A stretch of 64,000 bases of DNA from a virus. Both the position numbers and the translations under genes were made by a program. This document shows, piece after piece, positions 15,853 through 54,073 of the stretch (position 1 is the first letter of the stretch; each line of letters opens with the position of its first letter). Location of the stretch: IMG/VR virus record IMGVR_UViG_3300020457_000004, positions 1-64,000 of that record, one strand, 5' to 3'. The notes beneath the pieces were generated by a model. It worked only from the letters and a program-made list of their open reading frames with translations. It had not been told where the DNA came from and ran no database searches.

Positions 15853-17227
15853 CTTTTATCTGACTCAAGTTCATACGAGAACCAAAATTTCCTTTATCAA
15901 ATACTGGTTGGTCATCTTCCTGTCCAGAGTCTACCAGATTTTGTTGGGCATCTTCTAAATCATATAATCTCATCTTCGCCCTATCAACACCAATCATAAA
16001 TCGTTTGTTTCTTGTAGGGTCACTATATCTGTTCTTCAATTGTTTGACCATCATATGACCTTGTTGTTCTAGTTCTTCTGTACTGATAAGGGCAAACATC
16101 AAATCAGCGGTTGCAGGCAGTCCAAAACTTTCTGAGGTATCTGTCAAATCCACATCACTATTGTTGAATCCACCTCGCGTGGTCTGTGTTGCGGATACTA
16201 TTGGTAGGTCATACTCTACTGCTAGTCCCCTTAGTTCCTCAGCGATTGCCTTGACTATAGTATATGAGTTTGCACCAGCATTGTTTCTTAGTCTTTGACT
16301 TACACAAATATTTAGATAATCGATAAAAATTATGTCTGGATAAAAATTTTGTTTGAGTTTCAACTCTTCAAGAAGTGCTCTAAAATGTCCAGCATGAGCA
16401 GTTGCAGTAGGATACTCTTTAACAATTAATCTACCATCAACTTTGTTTTGAATTTTTTGAATACGGTCTGTGTACATAGACTTGGATAGGTCTCTCAAAT
16501 CTTGCATGGAAACATCCATCATGTTTGCATCGATTCTTTCAGCGATTCTTTCCTCTGCCATTTCTAATGTAATGTACAGAACATTCTTACCTTGGGCAAT
16601 CATAGAAGCACCCACATGACACATGAAAAGAGATTTACCCACACCTGTACCAGCAAGAGCAATATTAAGTGTCTTGTTTATCAATCCACCTTCAGTAATC
16701 TTGTTGAAATATTCTAAATCAAATGGTAATTTTTCTTCGTGTCTGTGATAAAAATCAAATCGTGCTTCCGCATCACCAACATAATCGTGACCAATGTTAT
16801 TATCAAACCCAACACTAAGAGCATCGGATAATATAGAAGGCAGAGCATCTACTGAATGGGTTTTATCCTGTCCATCGATAATCTGAATAGATTGCATGAT
16901 AGCATTGTAAACTGCCTTGTCCTTACAGAATTTTTCTGTTTGGTCAATCAACCATCTTTCATCTTCATTGGTCGGACTGAGACTATTGATAAGTTCTTCA
17001 CACTTACCATAAAGGTCTTCAGTAATTTTTCTATTATCTTGTAGTGCGATTTTGATTGCACTTTTTTGTGGTGGAGAATTGTATGCGGTAACATAATCAC
17101 GCACACACTTAAATACCTCACGATACTCTGCATCTAAAAAATAAGATGCTTTTATATGTGCAATTGATTGTCTGACATAATCTTCGTTATGTATCAGATT
17201 CGATAGTATTGTCTGTTCTAATCTCAT
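15848..17227 (-). CDS. 41: Replicative DNA helicase gp41
   Basis: 459 residues, close to T4 gp41 (475). DnaB-type helicase: N-terminal helical domain, linker, then a RecA-like motor with Walker A AGTGVGKS near residues 193-200, IIFIDYLNI (Walker B), SATQTTRG (motif H3-like) and DLMFALIS. It unwinds the fork as a hexamer and pairs with the primase, which is not in this window. Overlaps the small zinc-finger gene by 41 bases and follows UvsX and gp43, a replication operon. Confidence 0.93.
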   Translation of the reverse strand: MRLEQTILSNLIHNEDYVRQSIAHIKASYFLDAEYREVFKCVRDYVTAYNSPPQKSAIKIALQDNRKITEDLYGKCEELINSLSPTNEDERWLIDQTEKFCKDKAVYNAIMQSIQIIDGQDKTHSVDALPSILSDALSVGFDNNIGHDYVGDAEARFDFYHRHEEKLPFDLEYFNKITEGGLINKTLNIALAGTGVGKSLFMCHVGASMIAQGKNVLYITLEMAEERIAERIDANMMDVSMQDLRDLSKSMYTDRIQKIQNKVDGRLIVKEYPTATAHAGHFRALLEELKLKQNFYPDIIFIDYLNICVSQRLRNNAGANSYTIVKAIAEELRGLAVEYDLPIVSATQTTRGGFNNSDVDLTDTSESFGLPATADLMFALISTEELEQQGHMMVKQLKNRYSDPTRNKRFMIGVDRAKMRLYDLEDAQQNLVDSGQEDDQPVFDKGNFGSRMNLSQIKV

Positions 17228-20977: not shown

Positions 20978-21385
20978 TTATCCTGTAAATTTCGGTTTTG
21001 TTTTCATCTCTGTAGATTGCGTGTGAGTAAATTTATTCAACCATTCCTTTATCAAATCTTCCTTGGGGTCATAAATGTATTCCAATTGACCATATGGTAC
21101 AAATAGGATACCTTTACTAGCAGGAGATTGTGGAACAAATGCAATTTTGAATTGTCCTTGTTTCCCCTCTGTAGGAAGATATTTGATGTTTGCTGGATTG
21201 GTAATAATATATCTACTACCTTGGTCATCCTTTTGTAGATAACAAATCATCTCTTCAGCACCAGAAATTTTAATGCCACATATTTGCTGAGGACTATCTT
21301 CAGACTCCTCGCGTGTCATTTCCTCTGGTGGAATATCTAATTTGACTTCTTCTACAACCTTTTTTTCACTTTTCTTTTTTGCCAT
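20978..21385 (-). CDS. Hypothetical protein (135 aa)
   Basis: 135 residues. Lys/Glu-rich first ~35, then a globular beta-containing region (QICGIKISGAEEMICYLQKDDQGSRYIITNP, IAFVPQSPASKGILFVPYGQLEYIY). Ends TKPKFTG. It sits between the small 33-residue membrane ORF and gp43. No known motif; possibly an early accessory protein. Confidence 0.7.
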   Translation of the reverse strand: MAKKKSEKKVVEEVKLDIPPEEMTREESEDSPQQICGIKISGAEEMICYLQKDDQGSRYIITNPANIKYLPTEGKQGQFKIAFVPQSPASKGILFVPYGQLEYIYDPKEDLIKEWLNKFTHTQSTEMKTKPKFTG

Positions 21386-21401
21386 TATTTCCTCTTGATA
21401 A

Positions 21402-41909: not shown

Positions 41910-41938
41910 ATTATACGCTATCTGCGGGCAAAAGTCAA
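41910..41938 (-). promoter_or_regulatory. Consensus sigma70 promoter of the gp46/gp47 operon
   Basis: Minus strand TTGACT (41933-41938), 17-base spacer, TATAAT (41910-41915); TTTG follows the -35. About 40 bases upstream of the 179-residue gene. Confidence 0.85.
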
Positions 41939-42540
41939 GTACTTTTTTCTGCATCTTTCAACTCTGGTATTTTCTCCTTTGCCATCTTCATTGCTTCCTT
42001 GTCATCCAGATATTTCGGACGCCTTTTAGGAACCTTCTTATCTTGTTCTGCGTACTGAGCATTATGTTTTTCCGCTTCATCGATTTGTTTTTTCATATAC
42101 TCTACGAATTCAGCAGAACCCCCATGACCTTCTTCGCCATCTATGATAGATTGCATGTCAATGTTCTGGATGTACTTGTACTTAGTGTCAAGTTGTTTCT
42201 TTTCTTTTTGTATCCTTCTTAGAAAAGCATAGTATGTAATCTGCGTGAAGTACGCAAATGGATTCTTTGACTTTTCTGGATTGAAGTTATCAATGTATGT
42301 GATACAGTTTTCTATACCATCCAAAATCATTTCTTCTCTGAATGTATAGTTTACGAAATTTGATTTGTATGCGAGGTGGTTTGCAATTTTTACAAAACAC
42401 TCTCCGATATACTCTGTGACACGCGGTTTATCTTTTCCTTTCTCTGCGGCCTCCAATACCGATTCTCGGTATGCAGTCATAGCAACAAGGAATTCTTTGT
42501 TGTTCACATAGTGTCGATTAGTTTCTGATTTCTTATTCAT
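41935..42540 (-). CDS. 55: Late-transcription sigma factor gp55
   Basis: 201 residues from Met at 42540; an ATG four codons earlier (42552) is also open but overlaps the predicted -10 box. Conserved gp55 blocks: YIGECFVKIANHLAYKSNF, EEMILDGIENCITYIDNFNPEKSKNPFAYFTQITYYAFLRRI (sigma region 2-like). Directs host RNA polymerase to TATAAATA late promoters, many of which are visible here. The stop lies inside the next promoter's -35. Confidence 0.92.
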   Translation of the reverse strand: MNKKSETNRHYVNNKEFLVAMTAYRESVLEAAEKGKDKPRVTEYIGECFVKIANHLAYKSNFVNYTFREEMILDGIENCITYIDNFNPEKSKNPFAYFTQITYYAFLRRIQKEKKQLDTKYKYIQNIDMQSIIDGEEGHGGSAEFVEYMKKQIDEAEKHNAQYAEQDKKVPKRRPKYLDDKEAMKMAKEKIPELKDAEKST

Positions 42541-42550
42541 AATGTTGTCC

Positions 42551-42579
42551 ATTCTATAATAAAGTTACGCAAAAGTCAA
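42551..42579 (-). promoter_or_regulatory. Early promoter of gp55
   Basis: Minus strand TTGACT (42574-42579), 17-base spacer, TAGAAT (42551-42556). Predicted start of RNA near 42544 leaves only a few bases before the internal ATG at 42540. Confidence 0.65.
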
Positions 42580-42601
42580 GCAAAAAAATAAAATATTTTT
42601 C

Positions 42602-42631
42602 TTGACAACTGCCCAAGGTTTCATGTATAAT
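42602..42631 (+). promoter_or_regulatory. Plus-strand consensus sigma70 promoter
   Basis: TTGACA (42602-42607), 18-base spacer, TATAAT (42626-42631) on the plus strand, with ACTG after the -35 as in the minus-strand set. Divergent from the gp55 promoter; no plus-strand gene follows. Confidence 0.7.
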
Positions 42632-42637
42632 GAGTTG

Positions 42638-42681
42638 TCGTTTAAGGATAGCTATATCTAATGTAGTATCCTTTTCTTTTT
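42638..42681 (+). ncRNA. Candidate ~45-nt antisense RNA
   Basis: Runs from the expected start of the plus-strand promoter to a hairpin AAGGATA...TATCCTT (42644-42673, inner CTA/TAG pairing) followed by TTCTTTTT. The RNA would be antisense to the stop codon and last codons of the 136-residue gene. Confidence 0.4.
42644..42681 (+). terminator. Plus-strand terminator-like hairpin
   Basis: Seven-base stem AAGGATA/TATCCTT extended by CTA/TAG with one bulge, then a T-rich tract with one C. On the minus strand no T-run follows. Confidence 0.55.
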
Positions 42682-43068
42682 ACCTATCAATTCGTCCACC
42701 ATTTCTTTAAGTGTTTCGTGGTCGAACATATCTTCTTCCTCATCATTTTCAAACTCCTCATCAATTGGTGGCGGGAGGTCGATTGGGTTGTTGAAATACC
42801 CATCTTTTAAATTTTCATATCCAGCGTGATACCCTTCACTTAGGGGCGCGATTGCGACTATATTATTTGTATTCACTTCAAAAACAGTTTCGTTAGAAAA
42901 TGACATCCACGGTCTTATTGAATAAGCTTCAGTTGTCATAGATACTGGCAATCTTAAAATTTCCATAGGATAGTGTAATGTTATCTTACCCAAAATTTCG
43001 GATTCTTCAACACTCGCTACTATCTGTAGCCCACTATCAAATACAATTATTTTTGGTTCGTTTGTCAT
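42658..43068 (-). CDS. Hypothetical protein, possibly Sm-like (136 aa)
   Basis: 136 residues. Residues ~5-90 contain beta-strand-like segments (KIIVFDSGLQIVASV, GKITLHYPMEILRL, NNIVAIAPLSEG), an order compatible with an Sm/LSm small barrel. An acidic linker and a helical C terminus (HETLKEMVDELIGKKK) follow. Conserved in related phages as I recall. Overlaps UvsW by four bases. Function unknown. Confidence 0.7.
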   Translation of the reverse strand: MTNEPKIIVFDSGLQIVASVEESEILGKITLHYPMEILRLPVSMTTEAYSIRPWMSFSNETVFEVNTNNIVAIAPLSEGYHAGYENLKDGYFNNPIDLPPPIDEEFENDEEEDMFDHETLKEMVDELIGKKKRILH

Positions 43069-44576
43069 ATCTTTCCTTGTGAGTCTAGCTTCACTACTTT
43101 GTAATCAAAGGATTCTTCATTATACATTTTAATTCTTTCTAACAGGTGGTTCAGAGTATAATTTTTTCTCTGTTTCCATGAAAGGTCATCACCAATATCA
43201 AACAAATTACATTTTGTTTTTATTTCACTTTTCCGAAGTCCTCTTCCAATCGACTGTAGATTTCTAATTCTACTCTTACTTGGAGAGGCAAACACAATAT
43301 TATTAAGGTTCCTTATATTTATACCTGTAGAAAAGGTTCCGTAACTGGCAATGATGATTGTATTATCAGATTTTTCTGTTAATGACCTAATTTTTTCTCT
43401 TTGGTCTGTTTCTGTGCCACCAAATACAAAATGAACTGGGCGGTCTGTCATTTTAGATATTATATCATATAGTTTCTGACCATGTTTTTCTACATACTGA
43501 TATAATAAAAGAGTATTTCCCTTCTGTGCTACAGTTAGTTTACTTATAATATTATTTCTGCCCGCGTGTCCGACTATAAAATCCATCTCTTCTTTGTAAG
43601 GCATCTTAGATACAAGTTTTCTTTCCTCATCTGGATACTCCAACAACATACAGACAATTTTTAAGTCTGCAAGTTCTTTCTTATCCATTAGTTTTTTGGT
43701 ACTAGTAACCTTATATACCTTACCAAACACACCCTCTAAGACTAATCTATGCGTTTGTGTACCATCTAATGTACCAGTAGTACCTATTCTAAATCTGGCG
43801 TTCGTGCATTTATCCATGAGAGTCATCAAAGACTTTGCTTTGAATAGGTGTGCCTCGTCACCGTACACTACATCAAATTCTTCAAACCATTTCTTTGGAT
43901 ACTTGTAGATAGATTGCCATGTTGATATAACAATGTCCGCTTTGTTTGTTTTTTCTTTACCACCGTATATCCTATGACAGTACTTTGATACATCAAAACC
44001 ATTGTGTGTGGAGTAATCAGCGAAGTCTCCGTACATTTGTTCTACTAAACTGGTAGTAGGGACTACAATAAGTTGTTTTCGTCCTAAGGCGTGATGATAT
44101 CGCGCCAGATTGTATATTATGAGGGACTTACCACTAGCGGTAGGGGAAAGTAAAAGAGTCCTGCCACCGTTGATTGCATCGAATACAGCGTCTTGTTGAT
44201 AGTCTCTTATCTGAATAGGTTTCCAGTTACTATGAAGTTTTAATTTACTGGCGAATTCTTTGACCTCATCGCGTGACATCTCCTCGCCAATCTCACCCAT
44301 CTCCAACTTGACTTCATACTCAAGTTGTTTTGCAAATTCTAATAGGTAAGGCAAAAGACCAACATATAGTTCTCGTCTGGATAGATTGTATAAACGAATC
44401 TTCCCATCCCAATGTCGGTTCCTATATGAAGGCATAAATGAGGCGCCAGGCACCTCAAAGGTAAAGAAATCTGATATCTCTTTTGTTATACCCTCATCGG
44501 AAGCTTCCACATACATATGCACATGGTCTTTCTGTTTGACAAATATCATAGTAGGCCAGATTGTGTCTTGTTCCAT
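43065..44576 (-). CDS. uvsW: UvsW helicase
   Basis: 503 residues, the same size as T4 UvsW. N-terminal substrate domain, then SF2 motifs: Walker A SPTASGKS, DEAH box GDEAH, TGT (motif III), and QSIGRGLRKS (motif VI). Unwinds R-loops and branched DNA and helps switch from origin to recombination-dependent replication. Overlaps UvsY by 31 bases. Confidence 0.95.
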   Translation of the reverse strand: MEQDTIWPTMIFVKQKDHVHMYVEASDEGITKEISDFFTFEVPGASFMPSYRNRHWDGKIRLYNLSRRELYVGLLPYLLEFAKQLEYEVKLEMGEIGEEMSRDEVKEFASKLKLHSNWKPIQIRDYQQDAVFDAINGGRTLLLSPTASGKSLIIYNLARYHHALGRKQLIVVPTTSLVEQMYGDFADYSTHNGFDVSKYCHRIYGGKEKTNKADIVISTWQSIYKYPKKWFEEFDVVYGDEAHLFKAKSLMTLMDKCTNARFRIGTTGTLDGTQTHRLVLEGVFGKVYKVTSTKKLMDKKELADLKIVCMLLEYPDEERKLVSKMPYKEEMDFIVGHAGRNNIISKLTVAQKGNTLLLYQYVEKHGQKLYDIISKMTDRPVHFVFGGTETDQREKIRSLTEKSDNTIIIASYGTFSTGINIRNLNNIVFASPSKSRIRNLQSIGRGLRKSEIKTKCNLFDIGDDLSWKQRKNYTLNHLLERIKMYNEESFDYKVVKLDSQGKI

Positions 44577-45617: not shown

Positions 45618-45646
45618 ATTATACTGCTATTTATAACAAATGTCAA
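45618..45646 (-). promoter_or_regulatory. Consensus sigma70 promoter with embedded late octamer
   Basis: Minus strand TTGACA (45641-45646), 17-base spacer, TATAAT (45618-45623): a full consensus match. The late octamer TATAAATA (45628-45635) lies inside the spacer. TTTG follows the -35 and a T8 tract precedes it. Confidence 0.85.
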
Positions 45647-45649
45647 GCG

Positions 45650-45675
45650 AAAAAAAAGGGAGTCTTGCGACTCCC
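45650..45675 (-). terminator. Terminator of the major capsid transcript
   Basis: Minus strand seven-base stem GGGAGTC/GACTCCC with loop GCAA, then eight T. The T-run directly abuts the next promoter. Confidence 0.92.
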
Positions 45676-45720
45676 TCTAAAACTGTTGTTTTTACTGGTT
45701 GGTTGTCCCAACTCTTATTG

Positions 45721-52135: not shown

Positions 52136-54073
52136 TTAACCGCCAAGTTCTTCAAAAGATATTCCGCTTCTTGTCGCAACAAATGTTAGCGTTATGAAGT
52201 TAATAGACTTAGCAGGTTTGACAAATATGTCAGCCTTAAATTCGTTTGCGTCTATAACTTGCGGTGTATTGTTTGTTTCGTCACAAACAACGCGGAAATC
52301 AAAGATACCCCTTCTTCCTTGTACATCTCGCAAGAAAGGTTCTACTAGAGCAACAAACTGTGCCCTTGTAAATGCATCGTTGAACTCGAATAATTGGAAT
52401 TTAGCAGCAGTTGCAATTGCCTTTTCAAGGACAATAAACAATCTACGGACATTAATCCTGTTAAATGCACTTGGTGAATCAAGCATTGTCTTGTCTCCAA
52501 ACAATACAATACCAGAGCCAGGCGTTGAAATTACTGGGTTAACACCTTTAGCATAAAGTGTATCCCTCTGTGCCTTGGTAGGTGACCATGCGAGTTTGAT
52601 TGCATTTTTAATCTGTCCCCTATTAAGACCGCCAGGCGAGAACCAAGGGTCATCTGATTTATCTGTAACAACACAAGTACCAGCGACATCTCCGTTCAAA
52701 GGAACATAGACATATCTGTCATTGTACTTGTCGTACATGTATTTCCAACCAGAATCATATACTGCATAAGATGAACGAGTATATGCATTTAGGTCAGAGG
52801 TTGTAATAATTGATGTTGATTCTGAACCTTCGTTGTTTACTACGGCACTTCTCTGTGGAGAAATAAATACCATAGCATCTTTACGGATTTCAGCAACATT
52901 GTCGATAACATAATCACCTACAGCAGTTGGGTGAGCAGAAGTAAGAATTAAACTTACATCTACTAATTCGTCATTTGCGAATAGTTGATATCCTGCCTGT
53001 AAATCAGAATTAGCAGGAGAAGCATCAACACCACTTGCAAGTGAAGTTGAAACATCACTATCTGAAGAACCATTCAAGCAGGCAAAAACTGTTCCGCCAG
53101 CAGATGATGTTCCCCAGTTAGAACCATTTGTAGGATGATCCATCCAGTATATCCATTCTGAACGGTCATTGATTACATTCTTGTAAAAGTTTGTTTGGTT
53201 GATGTCATCTTTAGCATCGGATGCCTTAGATAATCCAGCAAATTTTTCTAGGACTGTTCCAGCAGTTCCAGTAATTTCTCCAGTTTCATCAATGACAATA
53301 ACATGAACCATGTCGCGTGAAGCACCATTGTTTTTTGCCCATGTAGTTGTGGTTGGTGTAAAATCAAACTGACTAGCATATGTCCATGCAGTTTGCAATG
53401 TAGATGTAGCAGTTGCAGATGAACCGTCACCACCAATAGTCACAGCAGGAGCGGATGAATATCCATAGCCTGGATGTGTAATTGTGATTGCGGAAACAGC
53501 ACCACCAGATATAGTTGCAGTTCCAGTAGCAGTAATACCACCTTGAGCGGGGGTAATTCCTGTTGGGTCAGCAAATGTGACTGTTGCGGATGTGTATCCA
53601 GAACCACCAGCGGTTACTGTTGCAGAACCTACTGACAATCCAGATGCAGATGCAATATCAGCGATTTCTACTTGAAGAGCATTACCTCGTGTGCCTGGGT
53701 ATTTTGCAGCCCATGGCCCTACAGAACCTTCTCCGTTGGAGTATGATTCTTGATATTGCTCTAGATTTTTAATTTGAACAGCAGTTCCAGTTGAGACTGC
53801 GTTTCTAGCAGCAGCTCCAACTTCTCTCACGGTTAATAAGTTTGAACCATAAGAAAGGAAACTTGATGCCACCATGTGGTCATAAAATATACTCAATGTG
53901 GGTTTACCGAACCTCTCAACAAGATTGTTCTCAGATTGTACTGAGATTATCTCATGAGCTGGGCCCCATTGAAAGTCTCCCACGATTCCACCAATAGTGG
54001 TGGCAACAGCGGGGACAACATTTGTGAGGTCTTTTTCTTGTACTAAGACGCCAGGCGATAATTGGAAAGCCAT
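52136..54073 (-). CDS. 18: Tail sheath protein gp18
   Basis: 645 residues (T4 659). PGVLVQEKDLTNVVPAVATTIGGIVGDFQWGP at the start and the C-terminal FDFRVVCDETNNTPQVIDANEFKADIFVKPAKSINFITLTF are sheath hallmarks. Residues ~150-240 hold an inserted beta module with GGSGYTSATVTF and YGYSSAPAVTIGG, also present in gp15. Contractile sheath. Ribosome site AAGGAG. Confidence 0.95.
   Translation of the reverse strand: MAFQLSPGVLVQEKDLTNVVPAVATTIGGIVGDFQWGPAHEIISVQSENNLVERFGKPTLSIFYDHMVASSFLSYGSNLLTVREVGAAARNAVSTGTAVQIKNLEQYQESYSNGEGSVGPWAAKYPGTRGNALQVEIADIASASGLSVGSATVTAGGSGYTSATVTFADPTGITPAQGGITATGTATISGGAVSAITITHPGYGYSSAPAVTIGGDGSSATATSTLQTAWTYASQFDFTPTTTTWAKNNGASRDMVHVIVIDETGEITGTAGTVLEKFAGLSKASDAKDDINQTNFYKNVINDRSEWIYWMDHPTNGSNWGTSSAGGTVFACLNGSSDSDVSTSLASGVDASPANSDLQAGYQLFANDELVDVSLILTSAHPTAVGDYVIDNVAEIRKDAMVFISPQRSAVVNNEGSESTSIITTSDLNAYTRSSYAVYDSGWKYMYDKYNDRYVYVPLNGDVAGTCVVTDKSDDPWFSPGGLNRGQIKNAIKLAWSPTKAQRDTLYAKGVNPVISTPGSGIVLFGDKTMLDSPSAFNRINVRRLFIVLEKAIATAAKFQLFEFNDAFTRAQFVALVEPFLRDVQGRRGIFDFRVVCDETNNTPQVIDANEFKADIFVKPAKSINFITLTFVATRSGISFEELGG

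What the first reader, a model, noticed from the sequence alone, without database searches (positions are those of the whole stretch)
42602..42681. Plus-strand promoter and terminator define a possible tiny antisense RNA
In an otherwise minus-strand region there is a consensus plus-strand promoter (TTGACA-18-TATAAT) followed within ~10 bases by a hairpin with a T-rich tail. The product would be ~45 nt, made of little more than the hairpin, and antisense to the end of the 136-residue gene. It lies back to back with the gp55 promoter. It could be a decoy or regulatory RNA, or simply a roadblock that separates the UvsW unit from gp55.
Basis: partly seen in the sequence, partly recalled or inferred. 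Interest (0 to 1): 0.58.

Follow-up and report, generated by a model that had tools for sequence, protein, structure and literature searches.

The report
Conserved backward promoter behind uvsW operon
A strong promoter that points backwards into the end of a DNA-repair operon is kept at the same spot across a whole family of marine T4-like phages, and in this phage it probably makes a tiny self-terminating RNA whose job is still unknown.

Summary
At 42602-42631 (+) there is a 12/12 sigma70 promoter (TTGACA-18-TATAAT), then a 7+6 bp hairpin (42644-42673) and a T-rich tail. In 12 distinct relatives both boxes are invariant while the spacer is only 69% identical, and the lower hairpin stem never varies. 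Chance is excluded.

It reaches beyond this phage. Of 80 gp55 loci, 63 have a backward promoter in the 250 nt before gp55 (shuffles: mean 0.76, maximum 3); four more have it behind an inserted gene. Named Prochlorococcus, Synechococcus, Pelagibacter and Methylophilales phages have it (Melnitz weakly); T4 does not. In the four insert loci it stays with the uvsW/Sm-like operon's end, not with gp55.

The strong terminator hairpin is special to the window's clade; elsewhere terminators are no commoner than chance. Outside the clade the predicted start sits in a dyad whose arms match within a phage and differ between phages.

Best reading: an early, cis-acting antisense promoter at the operon's 3' end. 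Its RNA and function are untested. I found no description in the papers I could search; the Syn9 paper was not held.

The parts
42602..42607 (+). -35 box TTGACA of the backward promoter
   Evidence: invariant in 12 of 12 rows
42626..42631 (+). -10 box TATAAT of the backward promoter
   Evidence: invariant in 12 of 12 rows
42634..42643 (+). predicted start region and conserved leader GTTGTCGTTT (start itself inferred, about 42637-42640)
   Evidence: 93% mean identity over the 4th to 12th base after the -10 box
42644..42673 (+). terminator-like hairpin; lower 7-bp stem AAGGATA/TATCCTT invariant, stop codon of the 136-aa gene inside
42674..42681 (+). T-rich tail TTCTTTTT (antisense of terminal Lys codons)
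42551..42579 (-). gp55 promoter TTGACT-17-TAGAAT, back to back with the backward promoter
42580..42601 (.). A+T-rich gap between the two -35 boxes (possible shared UP element, inferred)
42658..43068 (-). 136-aa gene, distant relative of phrog_471 / Sm-like family; its 3' end is overlapped
43065..44576 (-). UvsW helicase gene, same operon
41935..42552 (-). gp55 late sigma factor gene

Best explanation
This is a host-sigma70 promoter that fires backwards into the 3' end of the uvsW/Sm-like operon, a feature kept across the marine T4-like phages (Kyanoviridae). In the window's clade the transcript is predicted to stop after about 45 nt at a hairpin built around the upstream gene's stop codon. Shown: both boxes, their conservation and their place. 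Inferred: that RNA polymerase fires there. Most likely action (inferred): early in infection, while host sigma70 is in charge, polymerase loading and short antisense transcription at the operon's end interfere in cis with convergent transcription of uvsW and the Sm-like gene, or with their read-through towards gp55; the interference fades once gp55 redirects polymerase to late promoters.
For: Boxes invariant while the spacer drifts: 12 of 12 box positions against 6 of 18 spacer positions in 12 distinct rows. 63 of 80 gp55 loci have an antisense promoter of at least 10/12 in the 250 nt before gp55; 50 shuffle sets gave mean 0.76, max 3 of 80, and nine flanking control windows gave 0-6 of 62-78. 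L101, L105, L113 and L115 keep a 12/12 copy 37-48 nt past the Sm-like stop codon although a gene is inserted before gp55. Spacers of 16, 17 and 18 with intact boxes in different clades are what a promoter would show. Hairpin: lower stem invariant in 12 of 12; its 5' arm is non-coding, and the adjacent upper 5' arm keeps only 1 of 7 positions. Strong terminator-like fold in all 10 distinct window-clade members tested (-6.9 to -10.0 kcal/mol).
Against: No RNA data. The upper hairpin shows no covariation above shuffles (2 pairs with double changes; 366 of 500 shuffles reach it). Outside the window's clade a terminator is no commoner than in shuffles (7 of 72 elements at -5 kcal/mol or better, null 7%), so a tiny RNA cannot be the family-wide function. 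Seven of 80 loci show no sign of the promoter. In the window's clade the RNA reaches only the last few codons of the Sm-like gene, too short to silence uvsW by pairing along it. The timing part rests on general knowledge of T4-like phages, not on a call.
Confidence: 0.45

Rival explanations
1. Promoter competition: the backward promoter exists to hold off the gp55 promoter. Polymerase bound on one side excludes polymerase on the other, so gp55 expression is delayed or tuned.
For: 77 of 89 loci with a backward promoter of 10/12 or better also have a sense promoter of 10/12 or better; in many the -35 boxes share one heptamer (TTGACAA / TTGTCAA), form a 16-bp palindrome, or lie 2-46 bp apart.
Against: In L101, L105, L113 and L115 the two promoters are 259-301 bp apart, yet the backward one is a perfect 12/12. 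In the window the -35 boxes are 22 bp apart, so simultaneous binding is conceivable.
Confidence: 0.2
2. Trans-acting small RNA: the ~45-nt RNA with its conserved 5' leader (GUUGUCGUUUAAGGAUA) pairs with phage or host mRNAs, perhaps helped by the neighbouring Sm-like protein.
For: Leader 93% identical across the clade in a non-coding stretch while the first 3 nt after the -10 box are 62% identical. The neighbour belongs to an Sm-like family in cyanophages.
Against: The leader and its complement have no other match with up to 3 mismatches in the 64-kb window; the remaining 73 kb and host genomes were not searched for targets. The leader drifts in L030, L032 and L033, and outside the clade there is no terminator to make a small RNA.
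Confidence: 0.15
3. Replication origin of the T4 R-loop kind: the backward promoter makes the RNA that primes DNA synthesis next to the R-loop helicase gene uvsW.
For: Strong promoter and A+T-rich DNA next to uvsW; resemblance to T4 origins is recalled, not tested.
Against: GC skew stays on its course through 42.6 kb. A terminator 12 nt after the -10 box would leave almost no primer.
Confidence: 0.04
4. Chance match without function.
For: Promoter-like sites as a whole are no more frequent than in shuffles.
Against: Family-wide fixed position far above shuffles and flanking controls; boxes invariant with a drifting spacer.
Confidence: 0.02

Closest known systems
CfrI antisense RNA of cyanophage S-PM2 (psbA region)
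   Same: Antisense RNA in a marine T4-like phage; function unknown (passages of PMC2984593 and PMC5931967 read).
   Different: CfrI is ~225 nt and lies at psbA and a homing endonuclease gene. The present promoter is at the uvsW/Sm-like/gp55 junction, is family-wide, and its RNA (if made) is ~45 nt in this clade.
PeSL cassettes (promoter early stem-loop) of T4-like phages
   Same: An early promoter joined to a stem-loop in an intergenic gap (seen only as a passage in PMC4503421; the two PeSL papers were not held).
   Different: Described there as mediating gene shuffling. Here the promoter points backwards into the upstream operon, sits at one fixed place, and lacks a stem-loop terminator outside one clade.
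Divergent, overlapping promoter pairs
   Same: Two sigma70 promoters back to back with shared or abutting -35 boxes in many loci.
   Different: One side has no gene; four loci keep it although the pair has been pulled apart.

Membership tests
sigma70 promoter | -35 and -10 hexamers at 16-18 nt | tested here: met
   12/12 in the window and in 12 of 12 rows of the clade
sigma70 promoter | Transcription starts there in vivo | not testable with these tools
   No transcriptome data in the tools
Intrinsic terminator | Hairpin followed by a U-rich run | tested here: met
   -10.5 kcal/mol and tail TTCTTTTT; the stricter consensus scan did not list it
Intrinsic terminator | Stem kept by compensatory changes | tested here: inconclusive
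   Lower stem never varies; upper stem has 2 double changes, no more than shuffles
cis-antisense RNA | Transcript overlaps a gene on the other strand | tested here: inconclusive
   The predicted RNA overlaps 42658-42681 of the 136-aa gene by sequence; that the transcript exists was not testable
CfrI | Lies at psbA and a homing endonuclease gene | tested here: not met
   Neighbours are uvsW, the Sm-like relative and gp55
PeSL | Early promoter plus stem-loop found at shuffling points | tested here: inconclusive
   Promoter plus stem-loop present here but at a fixed place; a related promoter class recurs at 1-2 other places per phage, and the stem-loop is clade-specific
Known Rfam RNA family | Match at the family's gathering score | tested here: not met
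   0 matches in the window

The most novel reading that the evidence does not exclude
The Kyanoviridae share an undescribed regulatory device: a backward early promoter behind the uvsW/Sm-like operon, with a phage-specific dyad around its start site that recurs at a few forward promoters of the same phage. The dyad would be read by a co-evolving phage factor, or act through nascent RNA, to time the switch from early to late gene expression. The window's clade has turned it into a 45-nt self-terminating RNA.
Probability: 0.3. Interest if true: 0.75.

Novelty: new variant of a known kind. Interest (0 to 1): 0.55.

Why it matters
How marine T4-like phages time their genes is poorly understood: cyanomyoviruses lack motA and asiA homologues, and middle promoters were not found in several of these phages (PMC2984593 and PMC9004378, passages). 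A promoter kept at one place in phages of cyanobacteria, SAR11 and OM43, pointing against the uvsW operon next to the late sigma gene, gives a concrete and cheap test: strand-specific infection RNA-seq for P-HM2 has been made (PMC5082946, passages) and could be re-read at this one site.

Tried and rejected
Chance: rejected. Protein-coding plus-strand product: no plus-strand ORF of 40 aa or more starts between 42529 and 43695. Known RNA family or tRNA: none. The inverted repeat GACAACT...AGTTGTC around the promoter in the window: full length only in part of the clade, so not pursued. Origin of replication: no skew switch. RNA hairpin against DNA dyad at the start site: 15 G-T and 0 A-C mismatches looked like RNA, but swapped arms give 7.3 to 0.9 by composition alone, so inconclusive. 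Synonymous-codon constraint under the hairpin: the AGG and ATA codons are invariant, but 3 of 11 six-fold and 3 of 4 three-fold columns of the gene (these two included) are too, so weak.

Rows dropped or doubtful: of the four extra 17-mer hits, L011, L014 and L025 lie in unrelated open frames and L013 in an unrelated stretch at a locus end without the promoter. L055, L059 and L091 were dropped by hand from the dyad set, and L105 as too short. L021 was first aligned 3 nt out of register (redone in 99-100; the segment figures are not used). The fold test used 10 of the 12 window-clade rows (L008 fell out as a duplicate over 40 nt, L033 was not given). L153, L188, L189 and L200 among the 16 'elsewhere' hits look like cut-off gp55 loci, so 16 of 80 is an upper bound. 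The 80 loci are the best of 597 relatives and are not independent; 70 of 91 elements are distinct.

Full report
WHAT IS THERE. The window is 64 kb of a 137,116-base virus record, a marine T4-like phage. Around the finding all genes run on the minus strand: UvsW (43065-44576), a 136-aa protein (42658-43068), then gp55 (41935-42552). Between the last two, on the plus strand, lies TTGACA-18-TATAAT at 42602-42631. Twelve nt after it begins a hairpin, 42644-42673, at -10.5 kcal/mol (1 of 200 shuffles folds as well), followed by TTCTTTTT. The stop codon of the 136-aa gene is inside the hairpin, and the T-rich tail is the antisense of its terminal Lys codons. The gp55 promoter (42579-42551, minus) stands back to back with it.

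CLOSE RELATIVES. The 136-aa protein found 10 IMG/VR loci and none in the named phages by tblastn. A 17-mer just after the -10 box found 15 stretches: these 10 loci, one new (L021) and four unrelated places. A gp55 search added L030-L033. In the 12 distinct rows aligned the -35 and -10 boxes are invariant at 12 of 12 positions and the spacer at 6 of 18 (69% mean identity). The 4th to 12th bases after the -10 box are 93% identical. The lower stem is invariant on both sides, including the 7 non-coding bases of the 5' arm, whose upper neighbours keep 1 of 7. The named structure pairs in 87.2% of cells against 36.5-60.3% when slid, but covariation is not above shuffles. This supports a working promoter and a kept lower stem; it says nothing for the upper stem.

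THE WHOLE FAMILY. Mosig, a Pelagibacter phage, has TTGACA-16-TATAAT at the same place. P-HM2, P-SSM4, S-RSM4, S-SCSM1 and ACG-2014j and Syn9, P-SSM7 and P-RSM4 have TTGACA-17-TAnnnT; Melnitz has a weaker form, read by eye. An alignment of ten gp55 proteins (A2) brought 80 loci, the best of 597 relatives. 63 of 80 have an antisense promoter (TTGAC, TAnnnT, 10/12 or better) in the 250 nt before gp55; the same sequences shuffled give a mean of 0.76 and a maximum of 3; nine flanking windows give 0 to 6. Of the 17 others, L101, L105, L113 and L115 have a 12/12 copy further off, behind an inserted gene, making 67 of 80. L073, L076, L091 and L108 have a sub-threshold form like Melnitz, and L056 and L059 a TTTACA-17-TATAAA, both seen by eye. 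Seven show nothing: L053, L054, L055, L063, L065, L100 and L116. In L100 and L116 the upstream gene ends at or within 15 nt of gp55, and in L063 another gene lies upstream; the other four were not examined further. T4 itself has nothing above 7/12.

WHICH NEIGHBOUR IT BELONGS TO. In the four insert loci the backward promoter stays 37-48 nt behind the stop codon of the Sm-like gene and points at it, while the gp55 promoter is 259-301 bp away. The lasting partner is therefore the operon's end rather than gp55. No sense promoter of 10/12 or better was found for the inserted gene, so sense transcription probably passes through the backward promoter; a perfect roadblock is unlikely. Still, in most loci the two -35 boxes share bases, abut or lie within 46 bp, so competition is a live rival.

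THE HAIRPIN IS LOCAL. A fold-based terminator scan finds it in all 10 distinct window-clade members tested (-6.9 to -10.0 kcal/mol). Of the other 72 elements only 7 reach -5 kcal/mol, against 7% of shuffles. The tiny RNA is thus a feature of this clade; elsewhere the transcript, if made, would run on into the Sm-like gene or end in another way.

THE DYAD AT THE START SITE. Outside the window's clade the bases between the -10 box and about +9 form a dyad: AACCT-TTGTAG-AGGTT, AACGG-TGT-CCGTT, CAGCA-TG-TGCTG, GACTA-TG-TAGTC and others. Of 62 distinct sequences 48 have at least 4 Watson-Crick pairs (one mismatch allowed); with arms swapped between phages the mean is 22.7 and the maximum 33 of 62 (mean pair number z about 8). 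Similar promoters with the same phage-specific left arm recur once or twice elsewhere in single genomes, there pointing forward into genes: before nblA in S-SCSM1, next to nrdC in S-RSM4 and ACG-2014j, and in Melnitz and P-RSM4. The left arm should lie upstream of the RNA, so an RNA hairpin is hard to form; and the loop varies from 2 to about 7 nt, which does not suit a dimer with fixed spacing. I leave this unexplained (note).

HOW IT MOST LIKELY WORKS. Shown: a conserved, consensus-strength backward promoter fixed behind the uvsW/Sm-like operon, and a conserved terminator-like stem in this clade. Inferred: early host-sigma70 polymerase uses it, and loading or short antisense transcription there interferes in cis with the convergent operon or its read-through, until gp55 takes over. 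That uvsW is a late gene in T4 is recalled, from no call; it fits but proves nothing. Confidence 0.45.

LITERATURE. [quoted passage not shown] also PMC5931967, passages). The P-HM2 study made strand-specific libraries and counted antisense reads; the passages I saw report antisense RNAs for the host (PMC5082946, passages; supplements not read). The Melnitz paper predicts promoters, and the word antisense does not occur in its main text (PMC9004378, term counts and passages). The Syn9 paper and the two PeSL papers are not held; that the Syn9 paper maps start sites is recalled. My searches for a description of this promoter were made; none of the listings or passages I saw describes it. That is not proof that it is unpublished.

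VERDICT. Observation confirmed; interpretation partly supported; a new variant of a known kind (phage antisense promoter or RNA), with an unexplained start-site dyad as its most unusual aspect.

Noticed in passing
L105, L113, L115, L101, L078 upstream of gp55; window 42551-42540: In Pelagibacter-type loci the gp55 promoter's -10 box lies only about 6-10 nt before the likely ATG, so the late sigma mRNA from it would be leaderless or nearly so.
   Followed up: no
window 42552 versus 42540 (minus strand): The first ATG of the gp55 ORF (42552) overlaps the -10 box of its promoter; the ATG at 42540 is the likelier start.
   Followed up: no
window 42658-43068: The 136-aa protein is a distant relative of phrog_471 ('methylamine utilization'); a P-HM2 member scores as Pfam Sm_like (4.5e-10), so this may be a phage LSm-type protein beside uvsW.
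   Followed up: partly
window 45618-45678 (minus strand): A strong terminator hairpin directly followed by a 12/12 promoter whose spacer holds TTATAAATA, close to the T4 late-promoter motif: a terminator/early/late composite before the next gene.
   Followed up: no
S-SCSM1 208836-208872, S-RSM4 177760-177796, ACG-2014j 16707-16743, P-RSM4 53261-53298, Melnitz 39729 and 73657: Forward promoters that share the phage-specific bases around the start site with that phage's backward promoter.
   Followed up: partly
Melnitz MZ577097, for example 3952, 32277, 66590, 73149: Many promoters share the spacer as well, roughly TTGAC[AT]TTTGTTATAAAAACATGTATA[AC]T: a promoter class with a conserved spacer.
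   Followed up: no
Mosig 21290-21400; Melnitz 132367-132462; P-SSM7 122082-122180: Annotated tiny hypothetical proteins that lie in the gap before gp55 and are probably over-predictions.
   Followed up: no
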